Origin: Lacticaseibacillus suibinensis
Lineage (GTDB): Bacteria > Bacillota > Bacilli > Lactobacillales > Lactobacillaceae
NCBI RefSeq assembly: GCF_003946175.1
Contig: NZ_RHOK01000003.1
Coordinates: 62,001-126,000, forward strand
DNA length: 64,000 nt
Direction: 5' to 3'
Shown here: positions 25,534 through 39,736 of the stretch, piece by piece
Numbering within the stretch: position 1 is the first letter of the stretch
How the letters are laid out: the number at the start of each line of letters is the position of its first letter
Notes under the pieces: model-generated
Databases searched by the model: none
Seen by the model: only the letters and a program-made list of their open reading frames with translations
What the model was told of the DNA's origin: nothing
Made by a program: the position numbers and the translations under genes

Positions 25534-25762
25534 GCAGGCGGGGTTGGCGTGGCGCCGGGGCGGGGTGGTCCTGCTGCGGGGTCGGCTGGAGCCAAAATGC
25601 GGTCTCCAGCCTCAAATGTGAACCGCCATCGCTACGCTCAACGGCGTTTCACATTTGCCCCCAGTCAAGCCAGGAACAGCCTGCAAAGCCCGCAGTCTAT
25701 TCGTGTCTTGACTGTTTCGCGGCTGGACCACCCCGCCCCTCTGCCAAGCCAACCTCACCTGC
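25534..25762 (+). repeat. Structured intergenic repeat, family 1, copy 1
   Basis: This is a 229-bp element with a closed outer stem: GGTTGGCGTGGC plus GGGGCGGGGTGGTC (25542-25570) pairs with GACCACCCCGCCCC plus GCCAAGCCAACC (25726-25754). Three internal hairpins follow: GGCTGGAG/CTCCAGCC, CAAATGTGAA/TTCACATTTG, and AGTCAAGCCA/TGTCTTGACT. It is closely similar to 39509-39736 in the same orientation and to 25892-26121 inverted. It has no convincing coding frame. Its function is not known; candidates are a MITE-like mobile element or a structured RNA. Confidence 0.85.
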
Positions 25763-25891
25763 TACATGGTCGTGAGGCTTATCAAGATGATGACACAGCA
25801 GCGATAGCATTGACTCCTGATTGTGAGTGAAACGTGATAGCCGTTACCGTCAAGATTGTGACAGCAACAGGCTATTCATCGTTGTCAAGCC

Positions 25892-26121
25892 GGGTTTGGT
25901 GGCAGTCGGCGGAGTTAGGCAGGGGTCTGGCAGTGAATCGATTGGCGACAGGAAGACCGGCGTGGGTTTGGCGCTGGGCTTCCCAGATAATCTTAGCAGT
26001 TTTGAAGACGCAACGGAGCGTAGCGACTGCAGCTTCAAAACTAGGCCCGAGGCCGGTTTGTGGCTCGGACCGGCCGCACTGCCAGCACCCCCGCCAAGCG
26101 GAGCCCACTGGCGCCGAACCC
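25892..26121 (-). repeat. Structured intergenic repeat, family 1, copy 2 (inverted)
   Basis: This is a diverged copy in opposite orientation. The outer arms GGGTTTGGTGGCAGTCGG (25892-25909) and CCCACTGGCGCCGAACCC (26104-26121) pair. Second arms GGCAGGGGTCTGGCAGTG (25918-25935) and CACTGCCAGCACCCCCGCC (26077-26095) pair. The inner hairpins are TTTTGAAG/CTTCAAAA with loop sequence AACGGAGCGTAGCG, matching the complement of copy 1, and GGCCCGAG/CTCGGACC. The total length of 230 bp matches the other copies. The 129 bp between copies 1 and 2 show nothing recognisable. Confidence 0.72.
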
Positions 26122-26170
26122 AGCGGCCTCAAACGCAGATCGAGAACCTGCGCCCAGTCGGGGGTGAACA

Positions 26171-26221
26171 TGCTATGATGGGGACAGCAGGATTGGTGAA
26201 AAGTGGTCAGGGTAGACCACT
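26171..26221 (+). promoter_or_regulatory. Promoter and leader hairpin of the polyphosphate operon
   Basis: The extended -10 TGCTATGAT (26171-26179) is followed by a leader hairpin AGTGGTC-agggta-GACCACT (26202-26221). The hairpin ends 4-5 nt before the AAAGGAG ribosome binding site, so it could modulate translation of the first gene. Confidence 0.55.
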
Positions 26222-26235
26222 GAAAAAGGAGCGCG

Positions 26236-37407: not shown

Positions 37408-37466
37408 TAAGGCAATTTAGCGCTTGTCGTCATTTCGACAGGCGATGCTCAGGAGGCACACTTTTC

Positions 37467-39446
37467 ATGGCAAAACCCACGTTTTATGTCACCACGCCGA
37501 TTTACTATCCATCTGGTAAGCTTCATATCGGCAATGCATACACGACCATTGCAGCCGACGTGCTCGCGCGTTACAAGCGCCTGACCGGCTACGACGTTTT
37601 CTTCTTGACCGGCACCGATGAGCACGGTTTGAAAATCGAGCAAAAAGCCGACAAGCTCGGCATCACCCCGCAGGCCTTCGTCGACGGGATGGTGACGCAG
37701 ATCAAGCAATTATGGAAAATGCTTGAAATCACCAATGACAAATTCATCCGCACCACGGATAAAGAACACGTGGCAGCGGTGCAAAAAATCGTTGAGCGCC
37801 TGATCAAGCAAGGCGACGTGTATCTTGGTGAATACACCGGCTGGTACTCAGTGGAAGATGAAGAATACTTCACCGAACCTCAACTGGCTGAAGTCTACCG
37901 CGACGAAGCGGGCAAAGTGATCGGCGGCAAGGCGCCATCTGGTCATGACGTCAAGCTGGTCCATGAGCCGAGCTACTTCTTCCGGATGAGCAAGTACACC
38001 GACCGGTTGTTGAAGTTTTACGATGAGCACCCTGATTTCATTCAGCCTGCTTCGCGTAAAACCGAAATGATCAACAACTTCATTAAGCCCGGCCTGGAAG
38101 ATCTCGCCATGAGTCGCACCAGCTTCAACTGGGGCGTGCCGATTCCTAGTGACCCGAAGCATGTGGTTTATGTCTGGGTGGACGCGCTGCTCAACTATAT
38201 CACGGCGCTGGGTTATGGCTCCGATGACACCACCTTGTTTGACAAGTACTGGCCAGCAGATGTGCAGTTGATTGGGAAAGAAATCGTGCGTTTCCACACC
38301 ATTTACTGGCCAATCATCTTGTTTGCTCTAGATCTCCCGCTGCCGAAGAAGATTTACGGCCATGGCTGGTTAGTGATGAAAGACGGCAAGATGTCCAAGT
38401 CCAAGGGCAATGCCATTTATCCTGAAATGATCGTCAAACGCTATGGGCTTGATGCCTTGCGTTATTACCTGATGCGAGCCATTCCGTTTGGCAATGACGG
38501 CATCTTCACGCCGGAAGACTTTATTGATCGGATCAATTTTGATTTGGCCAATGACCTTGGCAACTTGCTCAACCGGACTGTTGCCATGATCAACAAGTAT
38601 GAAGGCGGCATTTTACCTGACCTGAGCCAAACCGAAGCGACCGAATTTGATGCCGACCTTGAAGCTGTCGCCAAAACCGCCATCGCTAAGTACGGCGACT
38701 TGATGGATAATCTGCAGTTCTCCGACGCCTTGGATGCCGCCTGGAAGCTGGTTGCGCGAGCGAATAAGTACATCGATGAAACCGAGCCTTGGACTTTGGC
38801 CAAGGATCCTGCCAAAAAAGCTCAGCTGGCCAGTGTCATGGGGCACTTGGCTGAAAGCTTGCGCCTGATTGCACTGCTCATTCAGCCAGTGATGACGCAT
38901 GCGCCGAAGCAGATGTTCGAACAATTGGGCATGGATCCAGCGCTGGAAGCTCAGCAACAGCTGGAATGGGGCCATCTGCCAGCCGGCAACCGGATTGCCG
39001 AACAAGGCACGCCAATCTTCCCGCGGCTTGATGTCGAGGAAGAAGTGGCCTACATCAAGGCTCAGATGCAGCCGCCGAAGAAACAAGCGACGGTAGACGA
39101 AAAGACCCGCAAAGGCGAAATCGACTTCAAGACTTTCGACAAGTCAGAAATCCGCGTGGCCGAAATTCTTAATGTGGAAAAAGTCCGCGGCGCCGATAAG
39201 CTCTTGAAGTTCACCTTGGACGCGGGGGATGAAGGCACGCGCCAGATTTTGTCTGGCATCGCCGAATATTACCCCCAGTTCAAGCAGTTGATCGGCAAGA
39301 AGGTTATGGCCGTGGTTAACTTGAAGCCACGTAAGCTCAAAGGCGAAATTAGTGAAGGCATGTTACTTTCTTCCGAAGACAATGCCGGGCACATCACCCT
39401 GCTTGAAGTTGCTGCTGGCATTCAAAACGGCAGCCTCGTCGGTTAA
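37467..39446 (+). CDS. metG: Methionyl-tRNA synthetase
   Basis: This 659-residue class I synthetase charges initiator and elongator tRNA-Met. The HIGH-type motif is [18 protein letters not shown] near 13-30. The KMSKS loop is [12 protein letters not shown] near 300. The anticodon-binding helical domain follows, and a C-terminal EMAP/Trbp111-type tRNA-binding domain (about 555-659, starting [18 protein letters not shown]) makes the dimeric long form. The start is ATG 37467, with AGGAGG 10 nt upstream; the frame is open further upstream but has no start signal. No T-box is seen. Confidence 0.97.
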
Positions 39447-39469
39447 CTGAAACCTGAATAGCCACTCAA

Positions 39470-39493
39470 AGCTCGGCTGCGGCCGGGCTTTTT
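39470..39493 (+). terminator. metG terminator
   Basis: AGCTCGGC (39470-39477) and GCCGGGCT (39482-39489) pair with one G-U, followed by TTTTTG. Confidence 0.88.
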
Positions 39494-39508
39494 GTATGCG
39501 TTGGGGCC

Positions 39509-39736
39509 GCGGGCCCGGCTGGTGAGGCGCCGGGGCCTGGCGGTCTAGCTGCGGGGTCGGCTGGAGCCGAAATGCGGTCTCCAGCCTCAAATGTGAGCCA
39601 GCATCGCGCATGCGCTCAACGCTGTCTCACATTTGACCCCAGTTGGCCCAGGAGCTGCCTGCTACGCAGTCACCTCGTGGGCCAACTGTTTCGCTGCTTG
39701 ACCACCACGCCCCTTTGCCTCCCCAGCCGGGCCCGC
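39509..39736 (+). repeat. Structured intergenic repeat, family 1, copy 3
   Basis: This 228-bp element is in the same orientation as 25534-25762. The outer arms GCGGGCCCGGCTGGTGAGGC (39509-39528) and GCCTCCCCAGCCGGGCCCGC (39717-39736) pair. The internal hairpins are GGCTGGAG/CTCCAGCC, CAAATGTGAG/CTCACATTTG and AGTTGGCCCA/TGGGCCAACT. Several pairs differ from copy 1 on both sides, so pairing is kept. Most of the 474-bp gap after metG is this element; 39737-39878 shows nothing recognisable. Confidence 0.87.

What the first reader, a model, noticed from the sequence alone, without database searches (positions are those of the whole stretch)
25534..39736. Family 1: a roughly 229-bp intergenic element in three copies, with covarying stems
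Copies at 25534-25762, 25892-26121 (inverted) and 39509-39736 have nearly the same length and fold: a closed outer stem and internal hairpins. Pairs change on both sides between copies 1 and 3: CAAATGTGAA/TTCACATTTG versus CAAATGTGAG/CTCACATTTG; AGTCAAGCCA/TGTCTTGACT versus AGTTGGCCCA/TGGGCCAACT; outer GGTTGG/CCAACC versus GGCTGG/CCAGCC. Keeping pairs while bases change implies selection on folded DNA or RNA. I do not recognise the family. It could be a MITE, a REP-like element or a structured RNA.
Basis: seen in the sequence. Interest (0 to 1): 0.78.

Follow-up and report, generated by a model that had tools for sequence, protein, structure and literature searches.

The report
Swappable three-hairpin DNA modules in lactobacilli
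The three repeats belong to a large, apparently undescribed family of DNA modules of about 230 bases, scattered between genes in some lactobacilli, that fold into one three-armed shape and are often replaced by a different module at the same chromosomal address while the neighbouring DNA stays the same.

Summary
Copies 1 and 3 are one subfamily (A); copy 2, inverted, is another (B) with the same fold. I curated 32 modules in the own genome (Lacticaseibacillus). A covariance model matches 8 of 30 same-genus genomes, 17 of 161 family genomes, and many loci in Levilactobacillus. In 102 aligned matches 56 of 60 pairs change on both sides. Pairs show no overall G-U preference, unlike RNase P RNA of the same genus, so pairing seems kept as DNA. 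A C.T mismatch is conserved in 93 of 102. Modules often sit tail to tail around a fast-changing spacer, like giant REPINs, but two module-rich genomes have no Y1 (RAYT-type) transposase and two only degraded ones. Most surprising: between sister species 11 of 27 orthologous module positions hold a different module, same orientation, between conserved flanks. I read them as non-autonomous mobile DNA, amplified by an unidentified enzyme and swapped in place by template switching at short shared sequences. REP-like is partly right, MITE undecided, structured RNA disfavoured. My open-access searches listed no description.

The parts
25534..25762 (+). Module A (copy 1): P1/P2 stem with three hairpins; 96% identical (core) to the module at the orthologous address in G015
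25763..25891 (.). Spacer of the composite; its inner part is 72% identical to the orthologous spacer in G015
25892..26121 (-). Module B (copy 2), facing copy 1 tail to tail; same architecture, different sequence subfamily
39509..39736 (+). Module A (copy 3), solitary; G015 carries a B module at the same address and orientation
39734..39751 (+). 3' tail of copy 3, one mismatch to CGCTNGATAACAGTAACG
39468..39493 (+). Terminator-like hairpin and T run behind metG, directly upstream of copy 3 (read by eye)

Best explanation
A family of non-autonomous mobile DNA elements with a giant-REPIN layout. Each module of about 230 bases folds, as a single DNA strand or cruciform, into one branched shape with three hairpins. 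The fold is shown by covariation; the DNA level is inferred from the missing wobble preference. The conserved C.T mismatch and AGCC/GTCT-type motif suggest a protein that reads the folded strand (inferred). The spreading unit is most likely a tail-to-tail pair of two unlike modules around a spacer, placed between genes, often just behind terminators; the layout is shown, spread as one unit is inferred from the similar L. hulanensis composites. The enzyme that amplifies it acts in trans and is unidentified. Once in place, a module is often replaced by a different one, in the same orientation (shown by comparing orthologous addresses). The likely cause is that the hairpins stall or break replication and repair switches template to another module through short shared sequences in the stem base, stem and tail (inferred from scattered junctions).
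For: Multi-copy and patchy: 17 of 161 family genomes, 8 of 40 genera. Double-sided changes in 39 of 83 pairs and 56 of 60 pairs. G-U against A-C cells 22:46 (A) and 29:31 (B), RNase P 102:25. C.T mismatch in 93 of 102 matches. 17 of 17 close pairs in G000 and G015 convergent. 11 of 27 orthologous positions replaced. Junctions differ from case to case: the slot's own P1 arms kept in L268/L258, L276/L257 and L264/L248, a hybrid module joined at CGGCCG in L266, an A/C chimera joined at GTGGTCCTGC in L269. 0 of 10 other species carry a module behind metG, so the insertion is lineage-specific.
Against: No mobilising enzyme found. No insertion caught in the act, no strain-level empty site, no target duplication seen by eye. 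In closely related orthologous A modules one-sided changes (39) outnumber two-sided ones (11). G016 S modules give 36 G-U to 19 A-C with the lenient filter (11:15 with the strict one), G016 L 10:7 and 4:7, and the cross-genus set is even, 102:96, so wobble is not avoided everywhere. Only one RNA control family. Unlike pairing is weaker in Levilactobacillus (5 to 8 of 25 alike). G029, also a carrier, does have intact Y1 transposases.
Confidence: 0.55

Rival explanations
1. Cassette exchange by a dedicated enzyme: an unknown recombinase or ssDNA transposase recognises the folded module, cuts at its ends and exchanges modules at fixed addresses, somewhat as an integron integrase handles folded attC sites.
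For: Same orientation in the 11 replaced positions; replacements are mostly across subfamilies, 57-70% identity in 10 of 11, which plain homologous conversion would not favour; conserved mismatch.
Against: Junctions are not at one bond: slot P1 arms retained in some swaps, hybrids joined inside modules in L266 and L269. No candidate enzyme found; integrases were not searched for.
Confidence: 0.2
2. Structured RNA genes or RNA-level regulators in many copies.
For: Strong covariation; stable RNA folds; G016 S modules with the lenient filter lean to G-U, 36:19.
Against: No wobble preference in A and B against RNase P (Fisher p 5e-11 and 1.5e-5); no single gene context; no Rfam match at gathering score in the window.
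Confidence: 0.12
3. Neutral palindromes: the arms stay complementary only because template switching keeps copying one arm onto the other, with no function for the fold.
For: Two-sided changes in recent orthologs exceed independence, 11 against 1.6 expected; block variants with complementary arms in L. hulanensis hairpin 3. Template switching is proposed to create and maintain hairpins in PMC8794818 (seen as listing and start of abstract).
Against: The C.T mismatch kept in 93 of 102 and near-invariant hairpin-1 bases across three genera would be erased or drift; paired sites differ less (5.2%) than unpaired sites (75 of 560, 13%) in orthologous A modules.
Confidence: 0.13

Closest known systems
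REPINs / BIMEs (REP doublets mobilised by RAYT transposases)
   Same: Many intergenic copies; two inverted palindromic units around a short, highly diverse spacer; DNA hairpins; non-autonomous (REPIN description from a passage of PMC8049555).
   Different: Units are about 230 bases with three hairpins, not 20-40 bases (size from PMC3733652 abstract passage); no GTAG-tagged small palindrome described here; element-rich G016 and G006 lack a Y1 transposase; modules are replaced in place.
Bacterial MITEs and pneumococcal BOX/RUP/SPRITE elements
   Same: Short non-coding intergenic repeats with stable folds; L. hulanensis composites share a terminal palindrome.
   Different: No target duplication seen by eye, no parent insertion sequence found, GC-rich, and two unlike modules per composite (MITE features from passages of PMC10969869).
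Integron attC sites
   Same: Folded single-stranded DNA with conserved unpaired bases, structure kept more than sequence (recalled; abstracts listed).
   Different: Much larger and branched, dispersed rather than in an array, integrase not searched for.

Membership tests
REPIN / REP-RAYT | Two REP-type units in inverted orientation around a diverse spacer | tested here: met
   17 of 17 close pairs in G000+G015 convergent; Levilactobacillus 25 of 34 close neighbours convergent, 0 divergent; spacer 43-47% identical in 3 of 5 orthologous composites
REPIN / REP-RAYT | Unit is a small (20-40 bp) palindrome | tested here: not met
   Units about 230 bases with three hairpins
REPIN / REP-RAYT | RAYT (Y1) transposase in the genome | tested here: not met
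   PF01797: none in G016, G006, G001, G011; interrupted or partial only in G000 and G015; present in G029 and G023
MITE | Terminal inverted repeats | tested here: inconclusive
   Terminal palindrome 29 forward and 29 reverse in G016; 0 in G000, G015 and G029; a few 1-2 mismatch matches in G001, G006, G011
MITE | Target-site duplication | tested here: inconclusive
   Inspected by eye in G016, none evident; ends not defined to the base
Structured RNA | Covarying helices | tested here: met
Structured RNA | G-U pairs tolerated over A-C mismatches | tested here: not met
   22:46 in A and 29:31 in B against 102:25 in RNase P
Structured RNA | Transcribed as a discrete RNA | not testable with these tools
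   No expression data
Integron attC | Tyrosine integrase IntI acting on the site | not tested
   No integrase search was made

The most novel reading that the evidence does not exclude
A class of folded-DNA elements whose modules are exchanged in place: chromosomal addresses stay fixed, their content (subfamilies A, B1, B2, C) turns over between sister species, and the spacer between paired modules can turn over faster still. This would be a bacterial replacement system acting on three-hairpin DNA, with its own structure-reading protein.
Probability: 0.3. Interest if true: 0.88.

Novelty: new variant of a known kind. Interest (0 to 1): 0.72.

Why it matters
Intergenic repeats are usually pictured as inserted once and then decaying. 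Here the address persists while the content is replaced, and the replaced unit is recognised by fold more than by sequence. That makes a natural assay for hairpin-driven template switching, or for an unknown structure-reading enzyme, in lactobacilli. The wobble contrast with a real RNA is also a simple way to ask whether covariation reflects DNA or RNA; covariation alone would have suggested an RNA.

Tried and rejected
RAYT as general mobiliser: G016, G006, G001 and G011 carry modules but have no Y1 transposase; G000 and G015 have only interrupted or partial ones; G029 and G023 do have intact ones. Rfam: no match at gathering scores in the window; in 8 other loci 4 matches, to group II introns and a lysine riboswitch, none of them at a module; below cut-off only chance-like hits of E 0.029 and worse. 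Plasmid and phage records: no match to copy 3. Viral contigs: 4 pattern matches, one with a convergent pair under R1. One fixed gene context: rejected. Pre-existing palindromic address behind metG: no module there in 10 of 10 other species printed. Spacers as shared cargo: in G000 and G015 no spacer matches a non-orthologous held locus. First alignments mixed orientations and were discarded. Rows dropped before counts: RNase P L278 (short locus, so 29 of 30); 4 of 38 B modules outside 165-185 bases; L152 and L159 from the G016 L set (18 of 20). Levilactobacillus neighbour counts used 110 of 116 matches; overlap between those loci was not checked. In one search the pair L001/L036 is misaligned at its 5' end and adds 14 of the 39 one-sided changes. 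A6 holds 102 matches, one of which (L044 minus) is the antisense of copy 3. Genome counts are lower bounds: the whole-genome search missed window copy 2, found in the window, and a C module in G015 (L248) found only later, so my earlier reading that G015 lacks it was wrong; it is not among the 27 positions.

Full report
1. Observation. The three copies exist at the given coordinates and fold far better than shuffled sequence. Copies 1 and 3 belong to subfamily A. Copy 2, on the minus strand, belongs to subfamily B, with the same architecture; A and B cores at swapped positions are 57-61% identical. Copies 1 and 2 form one composite: A, a 129-base spacer, then B facing it. It lies between an aldo/keto reductase gene and a Ppx/GppA-type gene; copy 3 lies between metG and an Fe-S_biosyn-domain gene.

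2. Copies. BLAST listed 24 matches (pieces included) for copy 1 and 19 for copy 2 in the own genome. A covariance model R1, built from 26 A modules (13 from G000, 13 from G015), gave 41 matches at E <= 0.1 in the own genome, some of them antisense to another. I curated 32 modules in G000 and 40 in G015. These 72 cluster into A (28), B (38) and C (6); at a finer cut B splits 19 and 19. Counts are lower bounds.

3. Distribution. R1 matched 8 of 30 same-genus genomes: G000, G015, G016, G029, G006, G001, G011, G023. It matched 17 of 161 genomes drawn from the family, own genome included, in 8 of 40 genera, with stricter filters. R1 on 60 of the 80 listed loci hit 46 of 46 from lactobacilli and 0 of 14 from other groups; the loci had been picked by a hairpin-1 motif. 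In genus g41 four genomes have one match each, at one orthologous locus beside a pyridine-nucleotide oxidoreductase-type gene and a NusG_II-domain gene.

4. Structure. In 26 A modules, 83 pairs are predicted, 95.8% of cells are paired, and 39 pairs have changes on both sides. None of 500 shuffles reaches the score, the cells paired or the double changes; one reaches the number of pair types. In 102 matches from three genera 56 of 60 pairs have double changes and 94% of cells are paired (the alignment was fitted to the model and leans towards it, and one row is an antisense match). Hairpin 1 reads AGCC in 86 of 102 and mostly GGTCT (64) or GGGCT (23) opposite. Hairpin 2 keeps a C.T mismatch in 93 of 102. 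In A all three hairpins carry AGCC/GTCT-type motifs; across genera a simple search finds it in hairpin 3 in only 38 of 102.

5. DNA or RNA. Selection on RNA should tolerate G-U over A-C. A modules have 22 G-U and 46 A-C cells of 2156; B modules (34 of 38) 29 and 31 of 2000. RNase P RNA of 29 same-genus genomes, treated alike, has 102 and 25 of 2451; Fisher p 5e-11 and 1.5e-5. G016 S gives 36:19 lenient and 11:15 strict, G016 L 10:7 and 4:7, the cross-genus set 102:96. On balance the pairing is kept at DNA level, with one RNA family as control.

6. Layout. In G000 and G015 17 of 17 close pairs are convergent. At the four-group cut none pairs alike, 5.1 expected, P 0.0025; at the three-group cut 3 of 17 do, 7.4 expected (several pairs are orthologs of each other). 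The 20 G016 pairs I fetched each join one short-type and one long-type module. In Levilactobacillus 25 of 34 close neighbours are convergent and none divergent, but 5 to 8 of 25 are alike, 8 to 12 expected. The 55 loci are 30 tandem, 16 convergent, 8 divergent and 1 undetermined in gene context. A run of five T lies within 110 bases upstream of the core in 31 of 72 modules, mostly 40-69 bases upstream; a run of five A in 11. Many modules thus sit just behind terminator-like sequence.

7. L. hulanensis. Composites are closely similar and bounded by a palindrome around CGCTGTCCGGCAGCG, 29 forward and 29 reverse matches, about 840-895 bp apart where both ends are seen. No target duplication was evident by eye. 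The apical part of hairpin 2 and the stem of hairpin 3 of the long type come in mosaic variants.

8. Swapping. 23 of 26 G000 loci have an orthologous G015 locus by masked flanks, 85-99% identical. Of 27 orthologous module positions measured, 15 have the orthologous module as best match among the 40 in G015 (86-98%) and one as second best (87%). Eleven are replaced: ten at 57-70% and one at 80% (rank 14), while 83-95% matches lie elsewhere in G015. Window copy 3 is one of them: G015 holds a B module there. Orientation is kept in all 11. At L274/L247 both modules are replaced while flanks and much of the spacer persist. In L268/L258, L276/L257 and L264/L248 the slot keeps its own P1 arms; L266 is a hybrid joined at CGGCCG; L269 joins the 5' part of an A module to a C module at GTGGTCCTGC. 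Such scattered junctions favour template switching at short homologies over a fixed-bond recombinase. Three positions lost the inner part and kept a short P1 palindrome: L263, L005, L252.

9. Spacer. In 3 of 5 orthologous composites the spacer is only 43-47% identical in a global alignment (baseline for unrelated DNA not measured). At L275/L240 and L271/L241 flanks are 94-98% and both modules 94-96%. L002/L253 has modules of 94 and 93% and one flank of 96%; the G015 contig ends on the other side, and its spacer holds a GNAT-family gene that the shorter G000 spacer lacks.

10. Maintenance. In seven orthologous A pairs, 39 one-sided and 11 two-sided pair changes were seen in 581 pairs, 1.6 two-sided expected if independent; unpaired sites differ at 75 of 560. 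So mismatches do arise and persist for a time, with an excess of paired changes.

11. Mobiliser. Y1 transposase PF01797 is absent from G016, G006, G001 and G011, interrupted or partial in G000 and G015, and intact in G029 and G023; 11 of 22 genomes match overall. Of 10 genes beside solitary modules 9 have ordinary host-type domains and 1 has no Pfam match.

12. Literature. The searches listed no description of such an element in Lactobacillaceae. I read passages found by term in PMC2267715, PMC3733652, PMC8049555 and PMC10969869; all others were seen as listings with the start of the abstract. Only open-access papers are searchable.

Noticed in passing
L253 429-1145 (G015:C11): The spacer of one composite holds a GNAT acetyltransferase gene (239 aa); the orthologous spacer in G000 is short and lacks it.
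   Followed up: partly
L266 and L269 (G000:C52): Hybrid modules: a B module start fused to a whole other B module at CGGCCG, and an A start fused to a C module at GTGGTCCTGC.
   Followed up: partly
L152-L171 (L. hulanensis): Apical loop region of hairpin 2 is hypervariable and mosaic between copies, while stems are conserved.
   Followed up: no
L441-L444 (genus g41): A single module at one orthologous locus in four genomes, a possible old, retained copy.
   Followed up: partly
L339 5642-5791 and 5980-7798 (Companilactobacillus nantensis): Group II intron segments lie just behind a module.
   Followed up: no
L454 882-1358: A predicted viral contig carries a convergent pair of modules near its edge.
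   Followed up: no
L445 3915-4087 (genus g38): A B-like module on a short contig of another genus, 99.8 bits, between a cation ATPase and a sortase gene; possible horizontal transfer.
   Followed up: no
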